NCBI RefSeq assembly: GCF_002240355.1
Contig: NZ_CP016353.1
Coordinates: forward strand, 3,274,501-3,338,500
Source: Prauserella marina
GTDB lineage: Bacteria; Actinomycetota; Actinomycetes; Mycobacteriales; Pseudonocardiaceae
Direction: 5' to 3'
DNA: 64,000 nt
Shown here: positions 5,311 to 62,368 of the stretch, piece by piece
Position numbering within the stretch: position 1 is the stretch's first letter
Layout: each line of letters starts with the position of its first letter
Made by a program: the position numbers and the translations under genes
Notes under the pieces: generated by a model
Seen by the model: only the letters and a program-made list of their open reading frames with translations
What the model was told of the DNA's origin: nothing
Database searches by the model: none

Positions 5311-5414
5311 GAGTCCCCCGCCAGGACACCGAGATCCGCACTCCGGCCGCCGACATCCGCGTCCAGGACGACGAGTTCGGCGCCCAGGACCACGAGTTGC
5401 CCACTCGGCCCGAA
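5311..5414 (+). repeat. 21-bp tandem repeat array A
   Basis: Five degenerate units (20, 21, 21, 21, 21 bp), each beginning GAG or GAC and four carrying a GA(G/C)(A/T)T(C/G) start; the best-kept core is GAGATCCGC. This is the same family as arrays B, C and D. Here the GAGATCCGC strand is plus, opposite to array B on the other side of the crotonase gene. Confidence 0.75.
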
Positions 5415-5643
5415 GCGACCGGTGCGAATGGACGCGGACCTCCGGAGGAAGCCCCCGGTCGACCAACACGGGCATCTACCAGGCACCGCATGGAACTGCG
5501 GCATTCGGCAAAAAGCCGTGGTGCGGCTGGAAAGCCGACTCGCCGGACGAGGCAGCACGCGATCCATTCCACCCAGCGTCCGGCTTCCTACCGCCCTCGG
5601 AGGCGTCCGCCACCAGCCCGGAGCCGCCCCGCCACCGGGGCGA

Positions 5644-5709
5644 ACCAAGCCGCCACAGGTCCGGAACCGTCCCCACCGCCAGGGTCGCCCGCCACCAAGC
5701 CGCCACAGG
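5644..5709. repeat. 16-bp direct repeat pair
   Basis: ACCAAGCCGCCACAGG occurs exactly at 5644-5659 and 5694-5709 (50-bp period) within GC-rich non-coding DNA. Its function is unknown. Confidence 0.7.
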
Positions 5710-5794
5710 CGGAAACCATCTCGGTCACCGGAATCGCTCGCCACGGGGCCGCCACCGGGGTGGCTGCCCCCGGGAGGGGGCCGGAGGTGTCGCG

Positions 5795-6562
5795 TCACTC
5801 GCCTCGCCACACAGGTGCGCGTTTTTCCTTGAAGGCCAGGGCACCTTCCCGTGCGTCGGCTGACGAGCGCACCGGCTCCGCGAATTCGTCCTGCTTGGTG
5901 AATGCCTCGTCGGCGGCCCAGTCCCTCGACGCCGTGATGATCGCCTTGCTGGCCCGTACCGCGAGTGGACCGTTTCGCGCTATGAGGCGTGCCAGTTCGA
6001 TCGCGGTTTCCTTCGCCGCGCCGGGTTTGGTGAGCCGGTTGACGAGGTGAACCTCGGCGGCGACGGCCGCGGACACGAACTCACCGGTCAGCGCCCACTC
6101 CACGGCCAGGTGGTACGGAACTCGTTCCCGCAGCCGCAGCAAGCCACCACCCGCCGCGACAAGACCGCGCCTGACCTCAGGCAGTCCGAAGACGGCATTG
6201 TCGGCCGCGACGATCAGGTCACAGGCAAGCACGACCTCGAAGCCGCCCGCGATCGCATGCCCCTCGACGGCGGCGATCAACGGTTTCACGGGTGGTTGCC
6301 GGACGATCCCCGCGAACCCGCGCTCCCGCACCGAAGGACGCTCACCGGCGAGGAACGCCTTGAGATCCATCCCGGCGCAGAACGTCGATCCCGCTCCGGT
6401 GACGACACCCGCGACGAGATCGTCGTCGGCGTCGAGTTCGCTCATGGCGGCCGCGATACCTTCGGCGGCCTCGGTGTTGATCGCATTGCGTGCTTCGGGC
6501 CGGTTGATGGTCACGACAAGGACGCCGTCGATCCGTTCGGTCAGGACGGGGGAGTCGGTCAC
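5795..6562 (-). CDS. Enoyl-CoA hydratase/isomerase family protein
   Basis: 255-residue full-length crotonase. The oxyanion-hole segments are STFCAGMDLKAFLAG (residues ~60-75) and EGHAIAGGFEVVLACDLIVA (~105-125). FGLPEVRRGLVAAGGGLLRL carries the Glu of the PE(V/I) motif, so the usual acid/base residue is present, unlike the crotonase at the left edge. GTG 6562 has GAGGAG about six bases upstream; the longer open frame to 6874 reads through repeat array B and is rejected. It acts on an acyl-CoA ester in lipid or side-chain breakdown; the substrate cannot be told. It is flanked by inverted 21-bp repeat arrays A and B. Confidence 0.88.
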   Translation of the reverse strand: MTDSPVLTERIDGVLVVTINRPEARNAINTEAAEGIAAAMSELDADDDLVAGVVTGAGSTFCAGMDLKAFLAGERPSVRERGFAGIVRQPPVKPLIAAVEGHAIAGGFEVVLACDLIVAADNAVFGLPEVRRGLVAAGGGLLRLRERVPYHLAVEWALTGEFVSAAVAAEVHLVNRLTKPGAAKETAIELARLIARNGPLAVRASKAIITASRDWAADEAFTKQDEFAEPVRSSADAREGALAFKEKRAPVWRGE

Positions 6563-6629
6563 GGTCTGCTCCTCACTGCCGGGTTCAGCTCGATCATCGT
6601 CGGTGATGCGAGCGGCCGGAGGGAATGCC

Positions 6630-6734
6630 TGAGCGCGCATCTCGCCGTCCTGGGTGCGGATCTCGGCGTCCCCGACGCGCAACTCGGCGGCCTGAGTGCG
6701 GAACTCGCGCTCCTGAGCGGGGGACTCGCACGGG
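6630..6734 (-). repeat. 21-bp tandem repeat array B
   Basis: Five consecutive 21-bp units at 6630-6650, 6651-6671, 6672-6692, 6693-6713 and 6714-6734. Consensus on the plus strand is TGAGTGCGGATCTCGGCGTC plus C, i.e. GAGATCCGC on the minus strand. It lies 68 bp upstream of the crotonase start and before the divergent EthD gene. Confidence 0.85.
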
Positions 6735-6827
6735 GCGTTCCTCCTCGGGCGCTCGGCGGCTACCGTGAACCGGTCTCGACAAGTCGCCGCCCGGTTCGCT
6801 GCCAAGCGAGGCCAGAAGGGACCCGCC

Positions 6828-7136
6828 GTGTACCGCATGATCGTCCAGTACACCCACCCCGCCGACCCTGACAAGTTCCTCGCCTACTACCGCGACGTGC
6901 ACGCCCCGCTCGCCGCCGGGCTGCCCGGCCTCGTCTCGCTCGACTGGGTGGCCTGCGAAACCCTCGACGGCTCGCGCGCACCCCACTTCCTCATCGCGAC
7001 ACTCACCTGGAACAGCAAGGCCGACGCACTCGCCGCGCTCGGCTCGCCGCAAGGAAAGGCCACGACCGCCGACCTCGCCAACTTCACCGATCCCGCGACC
7101 GTGGCGGTCGACTTCGGTGAGGTGAACCCCGGCTGA
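6828..7136 (+). CDS. EthD-domain protein
   Basis: 102-residue protein of the EthD dimeric alpha/beta-barrel family, small cytoplasmic proteins tied to degradation of ethers and other xenobiotics or to polyketide tailoring. It starts with YRMIVQYTHPADPDKFLAYY followed by RDVHAPLAAGLPGL, the HxP signature of the family, and ends with a predicted strand (ATVAVDFGEV). GTG 6828 has AGAAGGG a few bases upstream; an upstream ATG at 6765 would add 21 unrelated residues. It is divergent from the crotonase with array B between, so co-regulation is possible. It converges on the DUF3558 gene. Confidence 0.8.
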   Translation: MYRMIVQYTHPADPDKFLAYYRDVHAPLAAGLPGLVSLDWVACETLDGSRAPHFLIATLTWNSKADALAALGSPQGKATTADLANFTDPATVAVDFGEVNPG

Positions 7137-7162
7137 GCCCCACGGCCGGGCACCAGGCTCAG
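7133..7162. terminator. Bidirectional terminator-like dyad over convergent stop codons
   Basis: CTGAGCC (7133-7139) pairs with GGCTCAG (7156-7162). The EthD stop codon is in the left arm and the stop of the convergent lipoprotein gene is in the right arm. No T-tract follows. Confidence 0.45.
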
Positions 7163-8145
7163 AAGTCGGGCAGCTTCTCCGTGATCATGCGCACCGCCGC
7201 CTCGACACCCGCGCAGGACTTCGCCGGGTCGTAGTCACCGCCGGAGATGACCACCGACGAGGTGCTGGTGACGGAAAGCGTCGCCAGGCAGTCGGTGTCC
7301 GACTCGGCGTAAGGCGTGTAGACGTTCCAGGTGTGCCCGCGCGCGGTAATGGTGCGCTGGCCGGGTTCCTCCGCGTAGGGCCACCTTTCGGCCGCCTGCT
7401 CGGGTTCGACGTAGACCACCATCGCCTTCACGCCGTCATCGCCGTCGGTGGAACGCCACTCGCACCCGGTCCGCTCGCTGGTCACCTTTCCGTTCGCCGA
7501 CAGGGACAGCTCGCCGGTCTGCTCCGGAGTCAGCAACGAGCACGCGTCGACCCCGTCGAGCGGCGTCGGCGGCGGGGGAGTCGAAGGCGGAATGGTCGCC
7601 CGCTCCCCACCCGGCAGGTGCCCCGACACGTAGCGGGCCGCTTCCTTCGGCAGGTCACAGGAGGCCGAGGGGTTCTCGTAGTCGGTGTTCATCATCGCGA
7701 CGAACTTGTCATGGCCGAACTCGGTCCCGATGATGCAATCGCTGAGATCCTCGGCGATTGCATCATCGGGATAGCGGTGCCAGGTCAGCCCGCCGACCTC
7801 GAAGGAGTCGATCGGCTCCCGCCAGTTCATGTACTGGTCGAGGGAGAACTCCGTCCCGAGTGACACCGACAGCAGGCCGGTGGCCAGCTCGTCGGTCAAC
7901 GCCCAGTAACAGGTCGGCGGCAGCAGATTCCCGGGCTCGCCGGGAGTGAAGTCACCTTCGGCGACGAGACCAGCGGCCGTGGCCTCCTCGGCGGTGAGCA
8001 GATCGCACGGCTCCCCTGTGAGCGGGTTTGGCGCGCCCGGCGGTGAACCCGGTCGCGCGGAGCCCGAGGTGATACTGGTGCAACCAGCCATCATCACGAT
8101 CAGTAACAACATGAGACCGGCTCGCGACCATCCACGTCTGTGCAC
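7159..8145 (-). CDS. DUF3558-type lipoprotein
   Basis: 328-residue exported lipoprotein. An N-terminal RRGWSR stretch, a hydrophobic run and the lipobox MMAGC (Cys ~22) mark a lipid-anchored envelope protein. Two DUF3558-like modules follow, each with the CDLLTAEE or CSLLTPEQ opening and internal CYW or CEW pairs: roughly residues 45-175 and 200-328, separated by a Pro/Thr linker (PPSTPPPPTPLDG). Single-module members are about 180 residues, so this looks like a tandem duplication. Function is unknown for the family; it is common in actinomycete envelopes. A 14-bp perfect inverted repeat lies inside the first module. GTG 8145 lacks a strong RBS. Confidence 0.83.
   Translation of the reverse strand: MHRRGWSRAGLMLLLIVMMAGCTSITSGSARPGSPPGAPNPLTGEPCDLLTAEEATAAGLVAEGDFTPGEPGNLLPPTCYWALTDELATGLLSVSLGTEFSLDQYMNWREPIDSFEVGGLTWHRYPDDAIAEDLSDCIIGTEFGHDKFVAMMNTDYENPSASCDLPKEAARYVSGHLPGGERATIPPSTPPPPTPLDGVDACSLLTPEQTGELSLSANGKVTSERTGCEWRSTDGDDGVKAMVVYVEPEQAAERWPYAEEPGQRTITARGHTWNVYTPYAESDTDCLATLSVTSTSSVVISGGDYDPAKSCAGVEAAVRMITEKLPDF
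7729..7767. repeat. Perfect 14-bp inverted repeat inside a coding region
   Basis: GATGATGCAATCGC (7729-7742) and GCGATTGCATCATC (7754-7767) are exact reverse complements separated by 11 bp, within the DUF3558 lipoprotein gene. Confidence 0.9.
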
Positions 8146-8254
8146 TGTGCTCGTCCGCTTCCGCCCGTTCTGTCCTGACCTGCCTCGATGTCGCGTCGCG
8201 GCATCCGGTCAAGACCATCACACGGCTGAGTCAGCCGCGGCAGCGGGGGCGGTG

Positions 8255-8926
8255 TCAGCGGCGCTGCTCAGTACTGTCGGTGAGCAAGCCGTGCTGGAGC
8301 GCGCGCAACACGGCACGCGTGCGATCCCGTACCCCGAGCTTCGTCAGCAAGCTCGACACGTGATTCTTGACCGTGCCCTCGGCGAGGTGCAGCGCGGTGG
8401 CGATCTCCCGGTTGGCGAACCCGCCCGCCAGCAGCCGCAAGATCTCCTGTTCCCTGTCGGTCAGCGGCAACGGAGGCGGCAGGTCGTCGAAGTCGTCCGG
8501 TGTCGGAAGCTGGTCGGTGGCTTTCAACAGCCGGTCGGTCAGCGCGGGCTGCACCAGGCTCCCCCCGGCGGCCAGAACCCGGATCGCGTCGATCAACTGC
8601 TCAAGCGTGACGTCCTTGAGCAGGTAGCCCTTCGCTCCGGCGCGCAACGCCCGCAACACGAGTTCGTCGTCGTCGAACGTGGTCAGCACGAGTGTCGGGG
8701 TCGCGATGCCGGCCGCCCGCATCGCGTTGAGCGTGTCGATGCCGTCCTTGCCCGGCATGCGCAGATCCAACAGCAGCACGTCCGGGGTGTCCGAGGCCAG
8801 CATCGCCAGCGCCTCGTCCCCGTCGGCGGCCTCACCGATGACACTCACCTCTGGCGAGAGTTCGAGCAGGCTCCGGACCCCGTGCCGCACCAAGGTCTGG
8901 TCGTCGACGATTCCCACCCTGATCAT
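8255..8926 (-). CDS. NarL/LuxR-type response regulator
   Basis: 223-residue two-domain response regulator. The receiver domain has the acidic pair DD (8-9), phospho-acceptor Asp54 in LLLDLRMP, Thr82 region LVLTTFDDD and Lys104 region GYLLKD. A C-terminal LuxR HTH (LTDREQEILRLLAGG, then IATALHLAEGTVKNHVSSLL) ends the protein. The linker is Pro-rich. It is translationally coupled to the histidine kinase upstream (ATGA overlap). The divergent ABC exporter gene at 10191 is the obvious target, with a compound dyad between them. Confidence 0.93.
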   Translation of the reverse strand: MIRVGIVDDQTLVRHGVRSLLELSPEVSVIGEAADGDEALAMLASDTPDVLLLDLRMPGKDGIDTLNAMRAAGIATPTLVLTTFDDDELVLRALRAGAKGYLLKDVTLEQLIDAIRVLAAGGSLVQPALTDRLLKATDQLPTPDDFDDLPPPLPLTDREQEILRLLAGGFANREIATALHLAEGTVKNHVSSLLTKLGVRDRTRAVLRALQHGLLTDSTEQRR

Positions 8927-10053: not shown

Positions 10054-10060
10054 ACCCCGC

Positions 10061-10066: not shown

Positions 10067-10089
10067 CGTGGTCGCTCCTCGGCCCACCC

Positions 10090-25783: not shown

Positions 25784-28700
25784 GCCAGCAGTTCCCACTG
25801 GGCGAGCCGCAGCCGCTGCCCAGTGCTCTCGGTGACCCGCAACCGGTGCCGCCGGAACGGGTGTGGCTCCGGCACCGCGAACGCGCGGGTCTGCTTGCGC
25901 CATACGAAGTTCTCGGCCGCCCTGCTGTCCAGCACCGTCCACGACAGACCGTCGTCGGAACCCTCCAGTACCCAGGCTTTCGGATCGTCACCGCGCGAGG
26001 CCGACGTCAGCGTGTACCCGCTCACCGTGCCTGCCGCGTAGTTCGCGGTGTGCTCGACGACGGGCGTCGCCGACCGGAACACGACCTCGGTCGCGGTCGT
26101 GTCGTCGAACAGCTTCCGCACGTCGGTACCGTCCGAGGACGTCGCCGTTCCCGCGAGGTCGCGCGGCGGCGACGGCCACACCGGCTGGACACTCGCCGTG
26201 GTGCCCCACGAGGAAGGTTCCGGCCCCATGTCGAAGTCGAGTACCGCTCCCTCGGCGAGGACGGAGTGGCCTATCCACGGCTGCTCGTGCGCGACCCCGT
26301 CGACTCGCAGGCCCTGTACGAACACGTTGTCGCGGCTGTTGTCCGGCGCGTTCACCACCAGGTCCGCTCCACCGTCGAGATGGACGACCGCGTGCCGGAA
26401 CAACGGAGAGCCGATCACGTACCACGGGCTGCCTACCGCGAGCGGGTAGAGCCCGAGCGCGCTCAGCACGTACCACGCCGACATCTCCCCGTTGTCCTCG
26501 TCGCCGGGATAGCCCTGCCCGAGGTCACTTCCCAGGTAGCAGCGGTCGAGCACCTCCCGCACGACGCGCTGGGTCTTCGCCGGTGCGCCGATCAGCGCGT
26601 AGAGGTAGGGAATGTGATGTGAAGGCTGATTGGAATGGCCGTACTGGCCGAGCCGGACCGCGGCGGCCTCGGTCATCTCGTGGATCACCTTGCGGTAGGA
26701 ACCCGTGCGGCGGCCCGTTTCCGGTGTGCTGAAGAACGTGTCCACAACGGACTCAAGAGCGGAGTTCCCGCCGTGCAGGGCGGACAATCCCGCGACATCG
26801 TGCGGAGCGCTGAACGCGGTGTTCCAGCCGTTGGTCTCGGTGTAGTCGTAACCCCACACCGTGGGGTCGTAGGAACGGGCGTCCCAGCGCCTGCCCCCGA
26901 GCGTCGTCCTGCCCTGGAAGAAACCGGTTTCCCGGTCGAAGTGATGCACGTACCGGGCCGCCCTGCCCCGGAAGTAGGCCGCGTCGTCGAGGTTGCCCAG
27001 TGCCAGCGCCCAGTTGGCGAGCCCGAAGTCGTTGACGCAGTTCTCCAACGCCCAGGAAAGTCCTTCTCGCGTCGATGTCGGCGTGTAGCCGAGGAAGATG
27101 GACTCGCCGAGTCCTGTCCTGCCGACATCGGCCCGGGGCGGGGTGACCGTGGCGTTCTTGACCGCGGCCTCGTAGGCCGCCTGGACGTCGAAACCGCGGA
27201 CCCCTTTGAGATAGGCGTCGGCGAACACCACATCCGAACCGGTACCCACCATCGCGTCGGCGTAGCCGGGGCACGACCAGCGGGAGATCCAGCCGCCTTC
27301 CTGGTACTGGCGGACGAAGCCGTCGAGCAACCGGCCCGCGAGGTCCGGCGCGAGCAGGGCGTAGGCGGGCCACGTGGTGCGGTAGGTGTCCCAGAACCCG
27401 TTGTTGACGCTCATGGTTCCGGGTCTGATCGCGGCACCGGTCCGTCTTCGGGTGCTCGGTCGTCGCGTGCGCAGCACGGGACTGGCGTGCCGGACGCCCT
27501 CCGGCGTGTCCTCGTGTCCCGAGTTAGGGTACAGGAACAACCGGTAGAGACACGAGTACAGCGTCACCAGCTCGTCGGTCGTCGCCCCGGTCACCTCGAC
27601 CCTGCCGAGCAGATCCCGCCACCGCTGCCGTGCCGCCTCGCGCACCTGTTCGAAGGTCAGCGGTGCCGCCACCTCGTTGTGCAGATTGCGCTTGGCCTGA
27701 TCAAGGCTCAGCAGCGACGTCGCGATGCGCATCGTCACGGTGGGGGAGGAGAAGCGGACGTATCCGGTGACGGCGCGCCTGCGCGAGGAGGTGAGCCTGC
27801 CTCCCTCGGCCGGTTGTTCGTCGAACGTCGCGTACACGTACATCCGCCGCGCGCCCGACGACGACCGGCTGCGCACCCACGTGTGCCCGGTGACGGCGCT
27901 GGTGGCGGTGTCGACGCGCAGGCCGCCCCTTGCGCGCGCGTTGTCGAACAGCACCCACCCTCCCTCGCTGGGAAAACCGAACCGGAAAACCGCGCCGTGA
28001 TCGGCAGGCGCGATGTCCGTGCTGATCCCGCCGTCGAACCGGACCCCGTAGTGGAAGGGAAGGCCGGTCTCCCGCTCGTGAGAGAACGGCAACGCTCTCG
28101 CCGCCCTGTCGGTGACCACCTCGCCCATGCCGGGCATCACCTGGAAGGTGTGCCGGTCGCCGACCCAAGGACTCGGCAAATGGCTCACCGCGAACGCCTG
28201 TAGCGCGTGATCCTGGTAGTGGTAAGGCCAGTCCAGCGCGCCCGCGTCGGTCACCGGCGTCCAGAAATTGAAACCGTTGGGCACCGCGGTCGCCGGAAAG
28301 CAGTTGCCCCGCGAGAAGTCCCTTCCGGAATGAGTTCCCCTCGTCGTGCGGACCAGATCGACGGGATCATCCGGCACCGGCGTGCGCGCGCCGACGCGAA
28401 GATCGTCGAGCCAGCCGCTGACTTCGTGCCCCTCAACGGGATTCGCCGTCGTGAGCACGATCGCGGTGATAGTGCGGCCCGCCGCGAGCTCCCCGACCGG
28501 CACCCGCACCAGGTTCCACTGATCGAGGTAAAGCTTCTTGCTCTCCCCGTTGGCCTTCGCCGTGGCGGAAGGGGAGAGGCCGGTGAGCGTGCCACCGTCG
28601 GCGAATTCGAGATCCACGGCGACGAAAGTGCTGTAATAGGTGGGTTCGGCGTCCGACTCCGGAAGAACCACATAGGACAGCTCGGTGTCTTCGGTCACCG

Positions 28701-28905
28701 GTATGTCCACAGTGAACAATCCGGCTCGCGCGGGGCCCTCAACGGTGGTCGTGTAATACAGGGCGCCGGTTCCGGTGCAGCCACGGCCCGCCCGCGCGGC
28801 GAGCGGCCTCGTAGGTCCCGCTCCGACGTGCACCCGCAGTCGCTGACCTGTGCCAGGTTGTGGATCGCCTTCCTCGAACGACGTGAAGAATTCGCTGGTC
28901 ACCAC
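25780..28905 (-). CDS. GH92 family alpha-mannosidase, no signal peptide
   Basis: 1041-residue glycoside hydrolase family 92 protein (calcium-dependent exo-alpha-mannosidases acting on mannans and N-glycans, with inversion). The signature GYPGDEDNGEMSAWYVLSALG is near residue 800. An N-terminal ~170-residue beta-rich carbohydrate-like domain, the TGTGALYYTTTVEG and WLDDLRVG strands, the NGFWDTYRTTWPAYALLAPD helix region, and a C-terminal F5/8-like domain (LEGSDDGLSWTVLDSR, HRLRV) follow. Start GTG 28905 sits 6 nt after TACAGT, a leaderless pattern, so no signal peptide is expected; most relatives are secreted. Overlaps the FUSC gene by 4 bp. Confidence 0.92.
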
Positions 28906-28911
28906 GCGGCC

Positions 28912-28917
28912 ACTGTA
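28912..28917 (-). promoter_or_regulatory. -10 box, leaderless start of GH92 gene
   Basis: TACAGT on the minus strand, 6 nt before GTG 28905, in the 24-bp gap after the DUF6069-like gene. Confidence 0.45.
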
Positions 28918-28929
28918 GCTTGTGAACGC

Positions 28930-29457
28930 TTACTGGTCGTAGTAACCGGGGTAGCCGGTTCCGCCGGGAGGATAAGGCGGCTGCTGGTGTTGCGGGCTTG
29001 TCTTGCGAGTCCGGAGCGCCCTCGTGGCCATGCCGCTGACCAGCGAGCCGATGGCGATTCCCATGACGAGGTATACCGCCGCGCTGGTCAGCCGCACGGT
29101 CAGGGTTTCGCTGACCGTGAAGGGCCACACCACGAAAACCACCGTGACCAGTGCGATGATCCAGCCGAAGAAGGCCATCGGCCGGGGTGCCACCAGCAGC
29201 AGCAAGTGGGCGAGGGCGGTGGCCAGCAGCGCGCCGACCGCGCCGAAGAGGGCCAGCCACACCGCACCGATGTAGTCGAGAGCTCCGTTCGTGTTGCCGG
29301 GCGCGATCACCGGCAAGCCGAAAACGCCGCGCAGTACCAGCACGGCCACAACACCGACAAGAGCGGCGACGAGAGCGGTCGCCAGCCCACCGGCCCACAA
29401 GGTGCGGCTGTCCACCGAGGGCCTGGCCTGCTCTTCTTCGTAACCGTAGTAGCTCAC
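28930..29457 (-). CDS. DUF6069-like small membrane protein
   Basis: 175-residue membrane protein with four hydrophobic helices (~20-45, 60-85, 95-115, 120-150) and a Pro/Gly/Tyr-rich C-terminal tail (PPYPPGGTGYPGYYDQ). Motifs LRGVFGLPVIAPG and APRPMAFFGWIIALVTVV look like the DUF6069 family of actinobacteria; function unknown. GTG 29457 is 8 nt after TATGGT, a leaderless pattern; the longer frames read into repeat array C and are rejected. GH92 follows after a 24-bp gap. Confidence 0.7.
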   Translation of the reverse strand: MSYYGYEEEQARPSVDSRTLWAGGLATALVAALVGVVAVLVLRGVFGLPVIAPGNTNGALDYIGAVWLALFGAVGALLATALAHLLLLVAPRPMAFFGWIIALVTVVFVVWPFTVSETLTVRLTSAAVYLVMGIAIGSLVSGMATRALRTRKTSPQHQQPPYPPGGTGYPGYYDQ

Positions 29458-29465
29458 CGTGTTGG

Positions 29466-29471
29466 ACCATA
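29466..29471 (-). promoter_or_regulatory. -10 box, leaderless start of DUF6069-like gene
   Basis: TATGGT on the minus strand, 8 nt before GTG 29457. Confidence 0.45.
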
Positions 29472-29518
29472 AGCGCAGTGGCCGGATCTCGCTCGGCGAA
29501 CCAGGCCGCCCCGCGCGC

Positions 29519-29749
29519 GAGTCCCCCATCCAGCCCACCGAGATCCGCGTCCAGGACGCCGAGATCCGCACTCGGACACGCGAGATCTGCGTCAGGGGCG
29601 CCGAGTCCTACATCCGGGCAGGCGAGCGCATTCGGCGCGGCGGCGACTTCCGCGTCTGGGCTGGCGAGTTCCGCACTCGGGCGCGCGAGTTCCGCGCTCG
29701 GGCAGGCGAGATGCGCATCCATGCCGGCGGGATCCGCGCTCAGGTTTCC
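29519..29749 (+). repeat. 21-bp tandem repeat array C1 (11 units)
   Basis: Eleven uninterrupted 21-bp units (29519-29539 to 29729-29749). All but the last start GAG or GAC (the last GGG), and most carry the GAGATCCGC or GAGTTCCGC core. The units diverge by substitutions only: not one insertion or deletion disturbs the 21-bp phase over 231 bp. Plus orientation, same as array A. Confidence 0.9.
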
Positions 29750-29813
29750 CGGTACGGCGGGTGGCCGGCCTGGATTCGGCGGCGTTACCGTCCCGCCCGG
29801 CTGTGCGCAGGCC

Positions 29814-29876
29814 GAACGCGGATGTCGCCAACCGGAACGCGGATCTCGCGCGCCTGGGTGCGGATCTCGGCGAGGC
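29814..29876 (-). repeat. 21-bp tandem repeat array C2 (3 units, inverted)
   Basis: Units 29814-29834, 29835-29855 and 29856-29876 carry GCGGATGTC/GCGGATCTC, the reverse complement of the C1 core. The array ends 5 bp before the M20 peptidase stop codon. It could pair with parts of C1 across the 64-bp spacer. Confidence 0.85.
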
Positions 29877-29881
29877 GCCGG

Positions 29882-31234
29882 TCAGATCGTGGCCAGCAGT
29901 CGTTCCAGCACGCGTGCCCCGAATCGCAGCCCCGCCACCGGAACCCGCTCGTCGACGCCGTGCGCCATCTCCCGGTACCGGAACCCCTCCGGCAACCACA
30001 ACGGTGCGAAGCCATAGCAGTCGATGCCCAGCGAGGCGAACGCCTTGGCGTCGGTCCCGCCGCCGAGGCAGTAGGGCACCACGACCGCGCCGGGATCCTC
30101 CGCCCGCAGCGCCGAGGCCATCGCATCGAACCACGGCGAATCCACCGGCGCCTCGACCGCGGCCTGATGGGCGACGAACTCCCGCTCCACCCCAGGCCCC
30201 AGCAGACCGTCGACGTCGGCGAGCAACGCCTTTTCCGTTCCCGGCAACACCCTGGTGTCCACCAGCGCGGTCGCCGTTCCGGGGATGACGTTGACCTTGT
30301 AACCGGCTTGCAGCATGGTCGGCGTGGTGCTGTTGCGCACCGTCGACTCGGCGAGCGAGGCCGCGGGCCCGAGTCTGGCGAGTGTTCCTTCGACGTCACC
30401 GAGATCGACCTCCACCCCCAGTGCTTCGCCGGTGCGCGACAGAAAAGCGCGAACCGACGGAGTGAGAGTAATCGGCCATTCGTGTGCCGCGAGCGCGTGC
30501 ACAGCGCCGATCAGCTTCACCACCGCGTTGTCCGGATTGCGGCGGGATCCGTGCCCAGCCCTTCCGTTCGCGGTGAGCCGCAGGTGCGCCGTGCCCCTCT
30601 CCGCCGTACCGACCGGATACAGCCGCACGGCCTGGCCCTCGACGTCCCGGACGTGATAGGTGTATCCGCCGGATTCACTGATCGCGACCGCGCAGCCGTC
30701 GAAAAGCCCGGGATGCGCCGCGACCAGCCAATGCGCCCCGAACTCGCCCTTGTCCTCCTCGTCGGCGACGAAGGCGAGCACGACATCCCTGCGGGGAGTC
30801 CTGCCATCGCGGGCCATCGCGTGCACGGCCGCGAGGACCATGGCGCAAAAATCCTTCATGTCGACGGCGCCTCGCCCCCACAGGAAGCCGTCCCGTACCT
30901 CGCCGGAGAACGGCGGCAGTCGCCACTCGGCCGGGTCGGCGGGCACGACGTCGAGGTGCCCCTGCACGAGCAGCGCCGACAGCGTGGGGTCGGAACCCGG
31001 GATTCGCGCGACGAGATTGGCCCGGCCAGGAGCGGACTCGTAAATCCGCGATTCGACACCGGCCGAGGCGAGCACCTCGCCCACGAATTCGGCGGCGTCG
31101 CGTTCGCCCTCCGATTGCCCTCCACCGAGATTGGTGGTGTCGAACCGGATCAACCGCGCGCACAAATCCACCACATCGGGTGCATCGGTCGGCCCGTTTC
31201 CTGTGGTATTGGGGAATTCGACGGGTTCAGCCAT
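29882..31234 (-). CDS. M20 family metallopeptidase (Rv2141c/DapE2-like)
   Basis: 450-residue dinuclear-zinc amidohydrolase of the M20 family. Zinc-site motifs are QGHLDVVPAD, WGRGAVDMKDFCAM and ADEEDKGEFGAHWL; the dimerisation lid domain lies mid-protein (GHGSRRNPDNAVVKL), and the last ligand is in the GGGTDAKAF region. Members cleave dipeptides or N-acyl amino acids; the mycobacterial Rv2141c type is annotated DapE2 without firm function. It overlaps the M55 D-aminopeptidase gene upstream by 8 bp, suggesting joint peptide processing. Its stop is followed by array C2. Confidence 0.9.
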   Translation of the reverse strand: MAEPVEFPNTTGNGPTDAPDVVDLCARLIRFDTTNLGGGQSEGERDAAEFVGEVLASAGVESRIYESAPGRANLVARIPGSDPTLSALLVQGHLDVVPADPAEWRLPPFSGEVRDGFLWGRGAVDMKDFCAMVLAAVHAMARDGRTPRRDVVLAFVADEEDKGEFGAHWLVAAHPGLFDGCAVAISESGGYTYHVRDVEGQAVRLYPVGTAERGTAHLRLTANGRAGHGSRRNPDNAVVKLIGAVHALAAHEWPITLTPSVRAFLSRTGEALGVEVDLGDVEGTLARLGPAASLAESTVRNSTTPTMLQAGYKVNVIPGTATALVDTRVLPGTEKALLADVDGLLGPGVEREFVAHQAAVEAPVDSPWFDAMASALRAEDPGAVVVPYCLGGGTDAKAFASLGIDCYGFAPLWLPEGFRYREMAHGVDERVPVAGLRFGARVLERLLATI

Positions 31235-32054
31235 ATTTGCCTTGCACGGCGCCGTCGGCGATGGCGGTGACGATTTTGAATGCCTTCATGGCCTCCGTCA
31301 TGTCCGGCGCGTCAAAACCGACGCTGCGGACACCGGTCTGTTCGACGGTCGGGATCACCGCGGCGGCCTGCGCGAGATGACTCGCGTCGAACTCCACCTC
31401 GATCCGGTGTTCACTGGTGAGCGGAGAACGCTGCCCCGCCTGGCGCATCCCGGTCGCCGCCGCTTCGGTCAGCCTCGCGTAGGCGACGGACGGTGCCAGG
31501 CACACGGCGGCATACCTGCTGACGCATTCCTTGACCGCGACCAATGTCGCGTCAGGGGCGTAGTCTTGCGCGTCCTCGCAGGTCTTGTCGTCGCCGCTGA
31601 CCATGAGCACCGGTACGCCGTACTCGGCGGCCAGTGCCGCGTTGAGTCTTCCCTCGCTGGCGAGCACTCCGTCGAGCCACACCCCGGTGATCTGGTTGGG
31701 CAGGTACGTGTGCGACAGCACGCCATCGCAACCGGCACCCGCGTGGTAGCCGAGAAAGACCACGCCGTCCACACCGGAGTCGATACCCTCCATCATGGAC
31801 AGCGGCTTGTGCCGTCCGGTCAGCATTCTCGCTCGTGGATCGAGATCCTCAAGCAGAAGATTGCGCTGGGAGGAATGTGCCTCGTTGACGAGAACGTCGT
31901 CGATGCCTGCTTCGGCGAGGCCGCTGATGGTCGCGTTGACGTCGCCGGTGAACAACCGGCGGAAGCGCTGCCATTGCTCCGTTCCGGGAACGACGTCGTC
32001 GGTCCAGGTGACGCCCGTCGCGCCTTCCATGTCCGCCGAGATCATGATCCGCAT
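31227..32054 (-). CDS. M55 family D-aminopeptidase (DppA type)
   Basis: 275-residue zinc D-aminopeptidase that releases N-terminal D-amino acids (D-Ala-D-Ala, D-Ala-Gly-Gly in Bacillus DppA). Metal and catalytic motifs are ISADMEG (Asp8, Glu10), NEAHSS, GYHAGAG followed by HTYLP, and EGRLNAA. Length and spacing match the family. ATG 32054 lies 6 nt after TAGGTT, so it is leaderless, and that box is inside a perfect 15-bp dyad. It is co-transcribed with the M20 peptidase and divergent from a dipeptide importer, a layout recalling B. subtilis dppABCDE: uptake and breakdown of D-peptides from cell wall. Confidence 0.94.
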   Translation of the reverse strand: MRIMISADMEGATGVTWTDDVVPGTEQWQRFRRLFTGDVNATISGLAEAGIDDVLVNEAHSSQRNLLLEDLDPRARMLTGRHKPLSMMEGIDSGVDGVVFLGYHAGAGCDGVLSHTYLPNQITGVWLDGVLASEGRLNAALAAEYGVPVLMVSGDDKTCEDAQDYAPDATLVAVKECVSRYAAVCLAPSVAYARLTEAAATGMRQAGQRSPLTSEHRIEVEFDASHLAQAAAVIPTVEQTGVRSVGFDAPDMTEAMKAFKIVTAIADGAVQGKYG

Positions 32055-48255: not shown

Positions 48256-49665
48256 TTGTCGGCAGCAGGATGGATTGTTGTCGCTATCCTCGCGCTCTTC
48301 GTGATCGTCACGGTCGCGAAGGCGCTCATGGTGGTGCCACAAGCCCAATCGGCGGTGATCGAACGTCTCGGCCGGTTCAAGACGGTCGCGTCCCCCGGCC
48401 TCAATTTCCTGGTTCCCTTCCTTGACAAGGTCAGGGCGAGGGTCGACCTCAGGGAACAGGTCGTTTCGTTTCCGCCGCAACCCGTGATCACCCAGGACAA
48501 CCTGACGGTGTCCATCGACACGGTCGTGTACTTCCAGGTCACCGACTCGCGTGCCGCGGTGTACGAGATCTCGAACTACATCGTCGGTGTCGAACAATTG
48601 ACCACGACGACACTGAGGAACGTCGTGGGTGGCATGTCCCTTGAGGACACGCTGACCTCGCGTGACCAGATCAACCAGCAGTTGCGTGGTGTTCTCGACG
48701 AGGCCACCGGTCGCTGGGGGATCAGGGTCGCCAGGGTCGAGCTGAAGGCGATCGATCCTCCACCGTCCATTCAGGACTCGATGGAGAAGCAGATGCGCGC
48801 GGACAGGGAGAAGCGCGCGATGATCCTGACCGCCGAAGGTCAGCGGGAATCGGCCATCAAGACGGCGGAAGGCCAGAAGCAGAGCCAGATCCTCGCGGCG
48901 GAAGGCTCCAAGCAAGCGGCGATCCTGGCCGCGGAAGCCGAGCGGCAGTCGCGCATCCTGCGGGCGCAGGGTGAACGTGCCGCGAGGTACCTGCAAGCTC
49001 AGGGGCAGGCGAAAGCCATCGAGAAGGTGTTCGCCTCGATCAAGGCCAGCAAGCCGACCCCCGAGGTGCTTGCCTACCAGTACTTGCAGACGTTGCCGCA
49101 GATGGCTCAGGGCGACGCCAACAAGGTGTGGCTGGTGCCGAGCGACTACGGCAAGGCTCTGGAAGGCTTTGCCCGCAGCCTCGGCGCGAAGGGCGACGAC
49201 GGCGTGTTCCGCTACGAGCCGCCGAAGGACGACAACGTCGAGATGCCGCCTCTGGACGACGAGGAGGTCGCGAGCTGGTTCGACACGGCCTCCGACCCGC
49301 ACGTCGCGCAGGCCGTGCGCGAGGCGGAAGCCGTCGCGCGGCAGGAGGTTCCCGGGCCGCTGTCCACGCCTTCCCGGCCGGCGACCCCGCCGCCCGCGGT
49401 GTCGGCGCTGAAGGGCAGCAACCCGCCCGAGGCCGCACCGGAGCCGAAGGAGGAGCAGGCTCCGCAGCTTCCGCCGTCGTCGACGGAGGCACCGCAGTCG
49501 ACACCTCCGCCGCCGCCTCCGCCAGCGCCGCCGCAGGCGCAGCAGCCTCCCTACGGTGGTGCGCCGCGTCCGCAGCAGCCGGGACCGTTCACCCCGCCGC
49601 CGCAGCAGGGTGGGCAGTATCCGCCGCAGGGGCCGCCGTTCGGTGGTCCTCCGCGTCAGCAGTAG
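48256..49665 (+). CDS. SPFH/Band 7 (stomatin/paraslipin-type) protein
   Basis: 469-residue membrane-microdomain scaffold: N-terminal helix (AGWIVVAILALFVIVTVAKA), Band 7 domain residues ~30-215, then coiled coil rich in Ala/Glu/Lys/Gln (residues ~175-260, QKQSQILAAEGSKQAAILAA). The C-terminal ~130 residues are a proline/glutamine-rich tail (QSTPPPPPPPAPPQAQQPPY), a feature of actinobacterial versions (Rv1488-like). It starts with TTG 48256, with a clear GAGGAG at a good distance. Together with NfeD it forms a two-gene operon ended by a strong terminator. Confidence 0.93.
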   Translation: MSAAGWIVVAILALFVIVTVAKALMVVPQAQSAVIERLGRFKTVASPGLNFLVPFLDKVRARVDLREQVVSFPPQPVITQDNLTVSIDTVVYFQVTDSRAAVYEISNYIVGVEQLTTTTLRNVVGGMSLEDTLTSRDQINQQLRGVLDEATGRWGIRVARVELKAIDPPPSIQDSMEKQMRADREKRAMILTAEGQRESAIKTAEGQKQSQILAAEGSKQAAILAAEAERQSRILRAQGERAARYLQAQGQAKAIEKVFASIKASKPTPEVLAYQYLQTLPQMAQGDANKVWLVPSDYGKALEGFARSLGAKGDDGVFRYEPPKDDNVEMPPLDDEEVASWFDTASDPHVAQAVREAEAVARQEVPGPLSTPSRPATPPPAVSALKGSNPPEAAPEPKEEQAPQLPPSSTEAPQSTPPPPPPPAPPQAQQPPYGGAPRPQQPGPFTPPPQQGGQYPPQGPPFGGPPRQQ

Positions 49666-57614: not shown

Positions 57615-57632
57615 GGGAACAACCCCACGACT

Positions 57633-57670: not shown

Positions 57671-57730
57671 GCCGGGAGTGCGGCCCGCAAGCGGAGGTGC
57701 AGGGGGTGGGTGCGCTGCGACGGTCGAGGC

Positions 57731-59024: not shown

Positions 59025-59085
59025 GCTTTCCAGCCGAAAGGCCGTTCGCGGCACGAAGCCGACCGGGAACGGAGCACAGGAGCTG

Positions 59086-59928
59086 GTGGCCACGCGCGAC
59101 GACGACGCCTTCGTATTGCCGCTGGCCGAGGTACGCCACGGACTGCGGGCCGATTGCGGGCGCTGCTTCGCGTTGTGCTGCGCCGCGCTGCCGTTCACGG
59201 CCTCAAGCGACTTCGCCTTCGACAAGCCGGCCGGTGTGGCCTGTGGGCATCTCGGTGAGGATTTCGGCTGCACGATTCACGCTTCGCTGCGGGAGCGGGG
59301 ATTCGCGGGCTGCGTGGTCTTCGACTGTTTCGGCGCCGGACAGCACGTCGCACAGCACACCTACGGCGGGACGGACTGGCGCCAGGCACCGGAAACCGCG
59401 CGGGACATGTTCGAGGTCTTCCCGGTCGTGCGGGTACTGCACGAACTGCTCTGGTACCTGACCGAGGCCGAGGCACTGCCCTCGGCGCGGTCCATGCGAG
59501 CCCAGCTGGCCGCCGCCGTCACCGAGACCGAACGCCTCGCCAGGCTCAGCCCGCCCGAGCTGCTGGCACTGGACGTGGAGGCTCATCGGGCGAACGGCAA
59601 CGCGTTGCTGGTGAAGGCAAGCGAACTCGCGCGAGCGGCGGTACCCGGCAGGGCCGACCATCGGGGCGCGGACCTCATCGGCAAGAACCTGGCCGGTGCC
59701 GATCTTTCCGGCGCGAGCCTGCGCGGAGCCCAGCTCGTCGGTGCCGACCTGCGCGGAGCGAAGCTCAGGCTCGCGGACCTCACCGGCGCCGACACGCGTG
59801 GCGCCGACCTCAGCGGTGCTCAGCTTGAGCACGGCCTCTTCCTGACGCGGCCACAGCTCACCGCCGCGCGCGGTGACGCGGCGACGACGTTGCCGCCTTG
59901 GCTGGAGCGCCCTTCGCACTGGGCTTGA
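59086..59928 (+). CDS. Cys-rich N-terminus fused to pentapeptide repeats
   Basis: 280-residue protein in two parts. Residues ~18-85 contain CGRCFALCC, FDKPAGVACGHLGEDFGC and GFAGCVVFDCFGAGQH, a Cys/His cluster resembling YkgJ/zinc- or iron-cluster modules. Residues ~195-250 are pentapeptide repeats (ADLIGKNLAGADLSGASLRG, GADLRGAKLRLADLTGAD, GADLSGAQL), a right-handed beta-helix of about ten repeats. Function unknown; pentapeptide proteins may bind DNA gyrase or partners. GTG 59086 has AGGAG a few bases upstream. Confidence 0.82.
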   Translation: MATRDDDAFVLPLAEVRHGLRADCGRCFALCCAALPFTASSDFAFDKPAGVACGHLGEDFGCTIHASLRERGFAGCVVFDCFGAGQHVAQHTYGGTDWRQAPETARDMFEVFPVVRVLHELLWYLTEAEALPSARSMRAQLAAAVTETERLARLSPPELLALDVEAHRANGNALLVKASELARAAVPGRADHRGADLIGKNLAGADLSGASLRGAQLVGADLRGAKLRLADLTGADTRGADLSGAQLEHGLFLTRPQLTAARGDAATTLPPWLERPSHWA

Positions 59929-59984
59929 GTCCTGAGCCGCGCGCTCACGCCGAGCGGGCGCTAGCGTCGGAGCGGGAGGGAAAC

Positions 59985-60329
59985 ATGACGATCGACACCG
60001 AGCCGCGTTTGTACGAGGTCAGGATCGGCGGATTCGGCGACGACGAGGGCGCGCTCGCCCTGACCGAACCCATCGCGAGACTGCTATGCCCCGACGAATG
60101 GCACGAGGGCCCCTGCGAAGTGCCGTGGGGATTCAGTCTGGCCGGTACCGATGGCGCCGAACTCGTCGTCGGGATCTACACGACGGAAAGCACGGCGGCC
60201 GAGATCCTCGCGCGAGTGCGCGCGCTCGCCGGACCAGACCACCCCTCGGCCCTCACCACTGGCGATCCGGGGTTGTTCCCCGACGTGATCACCCAGTACG
60301 AGATCGAGCACGGCACCGCGCCACAGTGA
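59985..60329 (+). CDS. Small conserved-looking protein of unknown function
   Basis: 114-residue protein, alpha/beta-like: YEVRIGGFGDDEGALALTEP, IARLLCPDEWHEGPCEVPWG, FSLAGTDGAELVVGIYTTES, ending YEIEHGTAPQ. No known family is recognised. Acidic, no membrane segment. ATG 59985 has an excellent GGGAGGG upstream, so it is real. It stands between the pentapeptide protein and the gamma-glutamyltransferase. Confidence 0.6.
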   Translation: MTIDTEPRLYEVRIGGFGDDEGALALTEPIARLLCPDEWHEGPCEVPWGFSLAGTDGAELVVGIYTTESTAAEILARVRALAGPDHPSALTTGDPGLFPDVITQYEIEHGTAPQ

Positions 60330-60468
60330 TCGCCGTCGCAACGCACGCGGGGCCATGTCCGATACCTTGCTTGGTCGGGCCGGTGCTTTTCCGCACGGAT
60401 CGGCCGGTCCGGGCAGCAGACGACATCCGGGCAGCAGGCGCGGAAGGCCGAGTGAGGAGCGCGCGTTC

Positions 60469-62244
60469 TTGTTCACGACCAGACCGACCCTGCAAGGCAC
60501 CCACGGGATGGCTGCCAGTACCCACTGGCTCGCCTCCGCCACGGCGATGGCAGTGCTGGAGGACGACGGCAACGCCTTCGACGCGGCCGTCGCGGCGGGG
60601 TTCGTACTCCAGGTCGTCGAACCGCACCTCAACGGGCCTGCCGGTGAGGTGCCGATCATCTTCGCGCCAAAGGGCGGAAAACCCACCGTGCTGTGCGGCC
60701 AGGGCCCCGCTCCCGCCGGCGCGACCATCGAGCACTACACGTCGCTCGGCCTCGACCTCGTGCCTGGCACGGGACCGCTGGCCGCGGCCGTGCCGGGCGC
60801 CTTCGACGCGTGGCTGCTGCTGTTGCGCGACCACGGCACCAAACGCCTCGCCGAAGTGCTGTCCTACGCCATCGGTTACGCCGCCAAGGGCCACCCCGCC
60901 GTCGACCGCGTCGGCGCCACCGTCGAAACCGTGCGGGAGTTGTTCGAAACCGAATGGCCCACCTCGGCCGAGGTGTACCTGCGGGAAGGCGGCGCACCGA
61001 AGCCGGGCGCGCTGCTGCGCAACCCCGCGCTCGCCGAAACCTGGCGGCGGGTCATCAGGGAGGCCGAGGCGGCCGGTCCCGGAAGGGAAACCCAGATCGA
61101 CGCGGCACGGCGCGTCTGGCGGGAAGGTTTCATCGCCGAAGAACTCGCCGCCGCCTCGGCGAAGCCCACGATGGACACGTCGGGACAACGGCACGCGGGC
61201 ACCCTCACCGCACAGGACATCGCCACGTTCTCCGCGACCTACGAAGACCCCGTCGGCTTCGAATGGAACGGCTGGACCGTGTGCAAGGTGGGTGCGTGGA
61301 GCCAGGGGCCCGCGTTCCTGCAACAACTCGCGCTGCTGCCGGACGAACTCGACTACGGCAGCCCCGGCTACGTGCACACCCTGATCGAAGGCGCCAAGCT
61401 CGCCATGGCCGACAGGGAGGCGTGGTATGGCGACACTCCCGACGTGCCGCTGACGGACTTGCTCTCGGCTGAGTACAACGCGGAACGCAGAAAGCTGATC
61501 GGCGAGCGAGCATCGTGGGAACTGCGGCCGGGCAGTCCAGGCGGCCGTGAGCCGGTGCTCGGCAAGTACGCGCTGGGCACGGCCGACGTGCCGCTCGCGG
61601 CCGGCTCCGGTGAGCCGACGGTCGCCAAGGACGGCGCCACCCGCGGCGACACCTGCCACGTCGACGTCGTCGACCGGCACGGCAACATGGTGGCAGCCAC
61701 CCCGAGCGGAGGCTGGCTGCACTCCAACCCGGTGGTGCCCGCGCTCGGTTTCCCGCTCGGAACCCGGTTGCAGATGACGTGGCTCGAACATGGACTGCCC
61801 AACGCGCTCACTCCCGGCCGCAGGCCGAGGACGACGCTCACCCCGTCGCTTGCGCTGCGCGGCGGGCAGCCCGTCATGGCCTTCGGCACGCCGGGCGGTG
61901 ATCAGCAGGACCAGTGGAGCCTGCACTTCTTCCTCGCCGTCGCGTTGCGGGAATCCGTGCGCTCCGGGCTCGACCTCCAGGGCGCGATCGATGCCCCCAA
62001 CTGGCACAACGAGAGCTTCACCGGCTCGTTCTATCCGAGGGCGATGCGGCCTGGCAGCGTGACGATCGAGTCGAGGATCGGCGAGCGGGTGCTCGGCGAG
62101 CTGCGGCGAAGGGGACACGACGTGACGGTGGGGGAGCCGTGGTCGGAAGGCCGCCTGTGCGCGGTCGCCAGGGATCCCGAAACCGGGGTGCTCTCCGCGG
62201 GGGCCAACCCGCGCGGCATGCAGGGGTACGCGGCGGGGCGGTGA
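60469..62244 (+). CDS. Gamma-glutamyltransferase family protein (Ntn hydrolase)
   Basis: 591-residue gamma-glutamyltransferase/cephalosporin-acylase-like protein: FTTRPTLQGTHGMAASTHWL start, VLEDDGNAFDAAVAAGFVLQ with VEPHLNGPAGEVPII, autoprocessing site GDTCHVDVVD whose Thr becomes the N-terminal nucleophile of the small subunit (after ~residue 390), then GNMVAATPSGGW and TPGGDQQDQW. No signal peptide is visible, so probably cytoplasmic. TTG 60469 is chosen: GAGGAG lies at 60454-60459, and relatives begin right there; the ATG at 60355 adds a low-complexity Arg/Gly tail. Confidence 0.85.
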   Translation: MFTTRPTLQGTHGMAASTHWLASATAMAVLEDDGNAFDAAVAAGFVLQVVEPHLNGPAGEVPIIFAPKGGKPTVLCGQGPAPAGATIEHYTSLGLDLVPGTGPLAAAVPGAFDAWLLLLRDHGTKRLAEVLSYAIGYAAKGHPAVDRVGATVETVRELFETEWPTSAEVYLREGGAPKPGALLRNPALAETWRRVIREAEAAGPGRETQIDAARRVWREGFIAEELAAASAKPTMDTSGQRHAGTLTAQDIATFSATYEDPVGFEWNGWTVCKVGAWSQGPAFLQQLALLPDELDYGSPGYVHTLIEGAKLAMADREAWYGDTPDVPLTDLLSAEYNAERRKLIGERASWELRPGSPGGREPVLGKYALGTADVPLAAGSGEPTVAKDGATRGDTCHVDVVDRHGNMVAATPSGGWLHSNPVVPALGFPLGTRLQMTWLEHGLPNALTPGRRPRTTLTPSLALRGGQPVMAFGTPGGDQQDQWSLHFFLAVALRESVRSGLDLQGAIDAPNWHNESFTGSFYPRAMRPGSVTIESRIGERVLGELRRRGHDVTVGEPWSEGRLCAVARDPETGVLSAGANPRGMQGYAAGR

Positions 62245-62305
62245 CCCCCGTGGTGGTGTGACCGGCGACGGGGGCTGTCGCGGTGTGGCGGTTCCGTTGG
62301 CGTCC

Positions 62306-62368
62306 CGAGTGCGGATCTCGATGTCCTGGGCGCGGAACTCGGTGTTCTGAGTGCGGATCTCGGCGTCG
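62306..62368 (-). repeat. 21-bp tandem repeat array D (3 units)
   Basis: Units 62306-62326, 62327-62347 and 62348-62368 share GCGG(A)(T/A)CTCG(A/G)(T/G)GT, same orientation as arrays B and C2. The array ends 8 bp before the TauD-like stop codon, between convergent genes. Confidence 0.8.

What the first reader, a model, noticed from the sequence alone, without database searches (positions are those of the whole stretch)
5311..62368. Dispersed 21-bp tandem repeat family in four intergenic regions
Arrays at 5311-5414 (5 units), 6630-6734 (5), 29519-29749 plus 29814-29876 (11 + 3) and 62306-62368 (3) share a core GAGATCCGC / GCGGATCTC with an exact 21-bp period. Units differ from each other at many bases but hardly ever by indels, so length and phase are under constraint. 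They sit only between genes. 21 bp equals two helical turns, so repeats lie on one DNA face, fitting a protein array or RNA structures. They read as heptapeptide repeats in all frames, which explains spurious predicted proteins. I know of no named family for this.
Basis: partly seen in the sequence, partly recalled or inferred. Interest (0 to 1): 0.8.

Follow-up and report, generated by a model that had tools for sequence, protein, structure and literature searches.

The report
Capped 21-bp repeat arrays between genes
Some actinobacteria carry up to a couple of hundred short tandem-repeat arrays between their genes, built on one strict 21-letter plan with a special end unit and a core word that varies between lineages; they may be docking sites that mark where genes end, and no matching description turned up in the papers searched.

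Summary
The core GAGWTCCGCRYYCRGG (≤1 mismatch) occurs 828 times in this 6.99-Mb genome, against 8 for the reversed pattern; sampling suggests about 230 arrays. (1) Arrays are polar: the first unit is a distinct cap, typically GCGAGTCCC(C/G)C. (2) Here 26 of 26 neighbouring opposite arrays face inward. (3) The scaffold, CGAG(T/A)-N5-RYYC every 21 bp, recurs patchily in the family with different predominant words; 395 sampled genomes outside it gave at most 2 hits each. Between two species 92% alike, 15 of 16 arrays keep place and strand, while unit number differs in 13 of 15. In genera g1, g44, g45 arrays often start within 20 bp behind a stop codon, in its sense; in g26 and g15 they mostly do not. 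Length changes per substitution are about 15-fold rarer than in ordinary intergenic DNA. In this genome no RAYT, coding frame, RNA fold or arm pairing explains them. Best reading: phased binding sites of an unknown factor marking gene ends. Structure is shown; function is inferred.

The parts
5309..5412 (+). array of 5 units; cap GCGAGTCCCCC at 5309-5328 (20 bp, read by eye), then 4 units of 21 bp
6625..6729 (-). array of 5 units, cap at the 6729 end; faces the array at 5309 across the gene 5795-6562
5795..6562 (-). enoyl-CoA hydratase gene lying between two facing arrays (start codon ambiguous: another run of my caller put it at 6853)
   Evidence: Pfam PF00378
29517..29747 (+). array of 10 scored units plus one irregular, cap at 29517
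29808..29870 (-). array of 3 units facing the previous one across a 60-bp spacer; its outer end is 11 bp from the stop of the - strand gene 29882-31174
28930..29457 (-). DUF6069 gene; with the array pair it lies in a segment of about 950-970 bp that has no counterpart at the syntenic place in three congeneric genomes
62301..62363 (-). array of 3 units, no recognisable cap, 13 bp after the stop of the TauD-like gene 62377-63132 (- strand)

Best explanation
These are phased arrays of binding sites for a sequence-specific factor, not yet identified, that marks the boundaries of transcription units, chiefly gene 3' ends. Shown: a 21-bp unit with conserved CGAG and RYYC half-sites about 9 bp apart, fixed period, a distinct first unit (cap), intergenic location, frequent start within 20 bp behind a stop codon in the gene's sense in three genera, stable position but labile copy number between close species, a constant scaffold with different predominant words in different genomes. 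Inferred: (a) the factor binds DNA, since a two-turn period is kept, the unit is a quasi-dyad and the orientation of pairs flips between lineages; (b) bound arrays act as roadblock or insulator for transcription entering the intergenic space, which fits the inward-facing pairs and the preference for gene ends; (c) the word changes together with the factor; (d) copies are gained and lost by tandem duplication inside the array while cap and often the distal unit stay put.
For: Period: 280 of 306 spacings exactly 21 bp. Length changes 0.0082 vs 0.125 per substitution. Cap: the second base of the word is C in 51 of 67 first units vs 23 of 355 later units in own; 16 of 16 vs 24 of 61 in G046 (one of the 16 is a finder artefact); 15 of 15 vs 17 of 46 in G078; 6 of 6 vs 20 of 55 in G002; 8 of 8 vs 30 of 90 in G213. 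Facing: own 26 of 26, G046 4 of 4, G078 4 of 4, G001 3 of 3, G002 3 of 3, G227 1 of 1, G200 1 of 1; 7 of the own 26 lie in stretches not picked for repeats, my count from the rows. Gene ends: cap within 20 bp of a same-sense stop in 26 of 34 arrays (G046+G078) against 6 of 34 with an opposing stop at the distal end; 6 of 6 vs 0 of 6 in G002; 5 of 9 vs 2 of 9 in G001; 17 of 69 vs 1 of 69 in own, 42 vs 13 within 150 bp. Convergent 3' ends with a gap of 60 bp or more carry a sense array in 8 of 28 (G046) and 8 of 26 (G078), tandem ones in 4 of 43 and 5 of 61. Orthologous positions 15 of 16. Constant scaffold with varying words. Adjacent own units (identity 0.697) are no more alike than non-adjacent units of the same array (0.710), so the consensus is not just fresh duplication.
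Against: No factor is known and none was sought systematically. Orientation is not universal: pairs in g26 and g15 are mostly back-to-back (G256 2 of 3, G197 1 of 1, G145 1 of 1, G213 2 of 3, G253 6 of 8), and there the cap is not nearer a same-sense stop (within 20 bp: G256 3 vs 5 of 8, G197 3 vs 3 of 6, G145 2 vs 3 of 5, G213 0 vs 2 of 8, G253 0 vs 0 of 16, G238 0 vs 0 of 2). In own 25 of 69 arrays have no same-sense stop within 400 bp of the cap, five facing pairs lie between divergent genes. The cap contrast is weak where most units carry C (G256 8 of 8 vs 16 of 25, G227 3 of 4 vs 13 of 19, G238 2 of 2 vs 10 of 12, G001 8 of 9 vs 34 of 60; G253 7 of 13 vs 11 of 33). Words are not unique to species: TCCCAC recurs in G213, G197 and G145, TCCCCC caps in own, G001, G002, G046 and G078. 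Spacers between facing arms show no helical phase (period 10.5: R 0.27, p about 0.15; period 21: R 0.02). Conserved position at 92% identity is expected for most intergenic DNA. Against congeneric genomes none of 6 own arrays in 120 kb lies inside an aligned block, though two abut one. The indel comparison uses another genus, and chaining tolerated only steps of 19-23 and 42. Many family genomes lack the pattern, so the function would be dispensable.
Confidence: 0.4

Rival explanations
1. Non-functional minisatellite family: a 21-bp unit was seeded behind many genes and spreads and drifts by slippage and recombination; period, cap and facing arrangement are relics of its origin.
For: Unit number differs in 13 of 15 orthologous arrays of G046/G078 and inner units are homogenised per array; none of 6 own arrays lies inside a block alignable to congeneric genomes; most of 297 family genomes have no more than a stray hit.
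Against: About 15-fold depletion of length changes; cap kept first in several genera; same scaffold with different words in different genera; own units keep the consensus although adjacent units are only 70% alike.
Confidence: 0.28
2. RNA-level 3'-UTR element: the sense transcript of the array is recognised just behind the stop codon, for instance as a Rho-loading (C-rich, unstructured) tract or as small hairpins, and ends or stabilises the mRNA.
For: Sense orientation and starts within 20 bp of the stop codon in many arrays of g1, g44, g45; sense strand richer in C than G in g44 (C-G +0.12 and +0.18); outside own most units keep U-R and G-Y compatible bases at the stem positions (e.g. pair 5-11 unpaired in 6 of 77 G046 and 2 of 63 G078 units); mean fold z is mildly negative in G213, G253, G001, G002 and G200 (-0.58 to -1.53) and -4.37 in two P. 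endophytica stretches that span both arms.
Against: Own arrays have C-G of only +0.03, and G256, G145 and G003 are slightly negative; mean fold z is +0.41 in own, +0.37 in G046, -0.14 in G078; in own, A at position 5 does not change the purine at 11; antisense arrays and arrays between divergent genes exist; an exact 21-nt period has no obvious use in RNA.
Confidence: 0.2
3. REP/BIME-like mobile extragenic element spread by a transposase.
For: Dispersed, intergenic, lineage-dependent sequence with a constant motif, inverted pairs, enriched at convergent gene ends.
Against: Y1 transposase PF01797 absent from own and found in only 1 of 18 array-rich genomes (3 of 15 array-poor ones); no shared spacer or target duplication seen by eye in the 24 pairs printed; no match of one 19-unit own array in phage or plasmid records.
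Confidence: 0.07

Closest known systems
BIME/REP elements of enterobacteria and pseudomonads (recalled)
   Same: Dispersed extragenic inverted-pair elements, enriched at gene ends, lineage-dependent sequence on a constant motif
   Different: Here 21-bp abutting units in arrays of 2 to 36, a distinct cap unit, no stable unit hairpin in own, no RAYT in own
MIRU / intergenic VNTR minisatellites of mycobacteria (recalled)
   Same: Intergenic tandem repeats whose copy number varies between relatives
   Different: Period 21, polar capped arrays, facing pairs, about 230 loci in this genome by extrapolation, family-level scaffold with varying words
TAACTGA direct repeats of Beggiatoaceae and cyanobacteria (PMC4679880; abstract and outline seen)
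   Same: Many sets of dispersed intergenic direct repeats (169 sets in one genome), proposed binding sites of an unidentified regulator
   Different: Heptamer repeats, in that genome mostly just upstream of start codons, found in several phyla; here 21 bp, often behind stop codons, seen only in one family
Non-coding satellite families (survey PMC6749651; passages and part 1 of 5 seen)
   Same: Dispersed non-coding tandem arrays
   Different: The survey reports dispersed non-coding families with long repeats only in Leptospira interrogans and Methanocella conradii; Amycolatopsis mediterranei is listed with 23 satellites and no such family is named in the parts seen

Membership tests
REP/RAYT (BIME) | A RAYT (Y1 transposase) gene in the genome | tested here: not met
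   PF01797: none in own; 1 of 18 array-rich genomes
REP/RAYT (BIME) | Stable palindromic hairpin unit | tested here: not met
   Own: stem pairs broken in 226 and 183 of 426 units, mean fold z +0.41 in 14 of 69 arrays; no arm-arm co-variation. Outside own the stem is mostly kept
Minisatellite / VNTR | Copy number varies at orthologous loci | tested here: met
   13 of 15 orthologous arrays differ in scored unit number
Minisatellite / VNTR | Unit sequence and length free to drift, no fixed end unit | tested here: not met
   Cap unit kept first; depletion of length changes
Rho-dependent terminator | C-rich, G-poor sense strand over about 80 nt (definition recalled) | tested here: inconclusive
   C-G +0.18 and +0.12 in g44, +0.03 in own, slightly negative in G256, G145, G003
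Rho-dependent terminator | Loss of termination when Rho is inhibited | not testable with these tools
   needs RNA
Protein-coding repeats | Length changes in multiples of 3 | tested here: not met
   Of 16 spacings not a multiple of 21, 13 are not multiples of 3; no 18 or 24
MITE / transposon ends | Target-site duplication and conserved terminal or internal sequence | tested here: inconclusive
   Spacers and 60-bp flanks of 24 pairs printed and read by eye only: nothing shared seen
Known structured RNA | Match to an Rfam model | tested here: not met
   No match in window 28700-30000 at E up to 1 nor at gathering score in L168, L042, L131, L047

The most novel reading that the evidence does not exclude
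An undescribed genome-wide boundary system of Pseudonocardiaceae: capped, helically phased arrays read by an unknown DNA-binding factor whose specificity shifts between lineages together with the arrays' internal word, insulating transcription units at their ends.
Probability: 0.25. Interest if true: 0.85.

Novelty: new variant of a known kind. Interest (0 to 1): 0.62.

Why it matters
Dispersed non-coding tandem-repeat families are reported as rare in prokaryotes (PMC6749651, parts seen). This one has of the order of hundreds of loci in a genome, obeys rules (period, cap, orientation within a lineage) and changes its predominant word between lineages, which makes a search for a co-evolving reader directly testable. 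It also bears on how GC-rich actinomycetes end transcripts, and ORFs drawn through such arrays would give spurious heptapeptide-repeat proteins.

Tried and rejected
RNA hairpin within a unit and long hairpin between arms: rejected for own; outside own most units keep G-Y and U-R compatible bases, told as counter-evidence. Facing as mere by-product of convergent genes: not enough for own, since divergent and tandem contexts face as well. Facing as universal: rejected, g26 and g15 are mostly back-to-back. One word per species: too strong; some words are shared between genomes, and the odds of the novel case were lowered from 0.28 to 0.25 for that. Cassette idea: G046 has a gene of 265 codons between a facing pair that is missing in G078, where the + array and, by eye, a two-unit remnant of the - array remain; this fits gene gain or loss beside arrays as well as cassettes, so not pursued. 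Helical phase between arms: none. Spread on phages or plasmids: no match for one own array. A strand asymmetry along the chromosome seemed visible in the pattern listings, but those are truncated, so dropped. One search failed (file name) and was not repeated in that form; TRF and the printed sequence were used instead. One search stopped half-way on masked bases, and its re-estimated model blurred strand, so one search replaced it. Gene positions come from my own codon-usage caller, not from annotation; start codons are uncertain. Own stretches L031-L050 were chosen because they held several matches; only the window, L011-L030 and L063-L068 count as unselected. One search left out L016; the fold test used at most the first 16 arrays per genome and only those of 55-420 bp. 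Unit counts come from the finder; for the array at 60149 two of its seven units look spurious by eye.
Full report
Check of the observation. All five arrays are in the window. The unit is GCGAGWTCCGCRYYCRGGNCG; '+' arrays read GAGATCCGC and '-' arrays are the reverse complement. The 16-base core occurs 828 times in the own genome with up to one mismatch, against 8 for the reversed pattern, and 341 against 0 exactly. A weight matrix over the window and 40 own stretches gave 429 units against 6 in reversed or complemented controls at a score of 12. In the 20 evenly spaced 20-kb stretches I count 13 arrays of two or more units, which extrapolates to about 230 in the genome. Without any chaining rule 280 of 306 consecutive spacings are exactly 21 bp (L016 left out).

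Anatomy. Among 69 own arrays (426 units) the word behind CGAG is TCCCCC in 32 of 69 first units and in 6 of 357 later ones; later units are mostly ATCCGC (142), TTCCGC (65) and TTCTGC (39). The first unit is thus a distinct cap. Neighbouring opposite arrays within 800 bp face each other, caps outward, in 26 of 26 cases (24 of 24 in the first set); 7 of these 26 come from stretches not chosen for repeats (my count). Spacers of the pairs range from an overlap of 13 bp to 526 bp, share no sequence that I could see by eye and have no phase. Arms of one locus are no more alike than arms of different loci (0.655 against 0.662; 281 of 300 shuffles reach the observed value), so the two arms look independent.

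Constraint. Adjacent own units differ at 2307 positions over 357 steps, yet only 19 steps are neither 21 nor 42 bp: 0.0082 length changes per difference. In intergenic DNA outside arrays of the pair G046/G078 the ratio is 168 indel events to 1346 substitutions, 0.125; in coding DNA 0.0056. A reading frame is not what is preserved: of 16 unrestricted spacings that are not multiples of 21, 13 are not multiples of 3 and none is 18 or 24. Caveats: the intergenic ratio is from another genus, and the chaining behind the 19 steps allowed only 19-23 and 42; the unrestricted spacing count points the same way.

Distribution. With a pattern fitted to the own unit (two mismatches), several of 297 family genomes stand far above the reversed control. 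With the cap-plus-next-unit pattern all four genomes searched of the own genus are rich (129, 271, 266, 410), as are G043 (143), G046 (193), G078 (236), G129 (214) and G256 (116), and more weakly G197 (50), G253 (37), G059 (33), G022 and G213 (28 each), G145 (19), G238 and G227 (14 each), G191 and G161 (10 each) and G200 (7); 102 of 297 have at least one hit, many of them single hits, with a control of at most 2 per genome and strand. Of 396 genomes across the phylum (own included, the other 395 outside the family) none but own has more than 2. Predominant words in the constant scaffold differ: TCCAAC in G227, TTCCAC and TCCCAC in G213, TCCCAC in G197 and G145, TCGTCC in G238, TTCTGC and TCGTAC in G253, TCCGAC in G256, TCCCCC in G001 and G002; some words are shared between genomes. 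Because the patterns depend on the word, genomes counted as poor could hide other words; a tandem-repeat count in four pattern-poor genomes (400 kb) found one array of period 21, of unrelated sequence, and none of period 42, against 10 of 15 non-coding arrays of period 21 or 42 in the 20 even own stretches, 14 of 18 in G046 and 15 of 20 in G078. Density is uneven: 190 kb of G001 and of G003, both rich genomes, held one array each, 70 kb of G002 none.

Evolution. G046 and G078 align at about 92% over 200 kb. Of 16 arrays in G046, 15 have an array at the same place and strand in G078; for the sixteenth a two-unit remnant is visible by eye. One of 16 arrays of G078, near the end of its stretch, has no partner in the stretch compared. 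Unit numbers (G046/G078) are 3/4, 7/5, 6/8, 4/3, 4/4, 7/3, 6/3, 7/3, 4/3, 4/4, 3/5, 4/6, 4/3, 4/3, 5/4: 13 of 15 differ. Cap units are kept; inner units are homogenised within arrays; the last unit is often recognisable as the same. A second 160-kb stretch has one array in each, at the same place, with 4 against 7 units. Most intergenic DNA is conserved at this distance, so shared position alone does not prove selection. At the next distance (own against G001-G003, blocks of about 68-82% identity) none of six own arrays in 120 kb lies inside an aligned block, where 40-53% of that stretch is aligned (only 70 kb of G002 was held); the array at 29808 abuts a block by 2-8 bp and that at 6625 lies 90 bp from one in G002 and G003. 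The pair at 29517-29870 and the DUF6069 gene lie in a segment of about 950-970 bp missing in all three, which have 7, 27 and 14 bp there.

Position relative to genes. In G046+G078 the cap lies within 20 bp of a same-sense stop codon in 26 of 34 arrays (6 of 34 for an opposing stop at the distal end); in G002 6 of 6 against 0 of 6; in G001 5 of 9 against 2 of 9; in G227 and G200 together 6 of 12 against 0 of 12; in own 17 of 69 against 1 of 69, and 42 against 13 within 150 bp. Convergent 3' ends with room (gap of 60 bp or more) carry a sense array more often than tandem ones: 8 of 28 against 4 of 43 in G046, 8 of 26 against 5 of 61 in G078. Genera g26 and g15 do not follow the sense rule (G256 3 against 5 of 8, G197 3 against 3 of 6, G145 2 against 3 of 5, G213 0 against 2 of 8, G253 and G238 none within 20 bp): pairs in G256, G197 and G145 are mostly back to back, 9-20 bp apart, and G253 has mosaics. 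In own, 25 of 69 arrays lack a same-sense stop within 400 bp, and five facing pairs lie between divergent genes.

What it is not. No Y1 transposase in own and in only 1 of 18 array-rich genomes, against 3 of 15 array-poor ones; no Rfam match in the parts tested; no phage or plasmid match for one own array; no fold signal in own, G046 or G078, mildly negative values in several others; no coding constraint.

Mechanism. A kept two-turn period, a quasi-dyad unit (GAGT-N5-RYTC), an orientation that flips between lineages and the lack of an RNA signature in own favour a DNA-bound factor; sense bias and starts right behind stop codons in three genera favour a role at transcript ends. I therefore prefer a boundary or roadblock array (0.40) over a drifting minisatellite (0.28), an RNA-level 3' element such as a Rho-loading tract (0.20) and a mobile REP-like element (0.07). 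Only anatomy, distribution and evolution are shown; binding and function are inferred.

Literature. Nine searches of the open-licence PMC set showed no description of this family; only 15 of 102 papers were listed, and most subscription papers are not covered. The nearest are the TAACTGA repeats (PMC4679880, abstract and outline seen) and a survey of prokaryotic satellites (PMC6749651, passages and part 1 of 5 seen). Statements on REP/BIME, MIRU and Rho are recalled.

Noticed in passing
L171 5305-6696 (G046) against the joined, reversed G078 stretch at about 30843-31240: A gene of 265 codons (5684-6481) sits between facing arrays in G046 and is missing in G078, where the + array and a two-unit remnant of the - array (by eye) lie under 300 bp apart; a hint that genes are gained or lost between facing arrays.
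   Followed up: partly
L126-L130 (G253), about 3500-4800: Intergenic mosaics where the 21-bp units are mixed with another palindromic repeat of the type GTGAAGG...CCTTCAC; blocks of up to 341 bp in this region are shared between loci.
   Followed up: partly
window 28919-29871: DUF6069 gene plus array pair absent from the syntenic place in three congeneric genomes.
   Followed up: partly
G046 C1:240001-400000 against 1180001-1380000: Array density differs about 13-fold between two stretches of one genome (1 in 160 kb, 16 in 200 kb).
   Followed up: no
window 48863-48937: 33-bp tandem repeat inside a predicted coding region (48301-49665).
   Followed up: no
G200 C1:3353181-3353546 (L161): The only one of 18 array-rich genomes with a Y1 transposase gene.
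   Followed up: no
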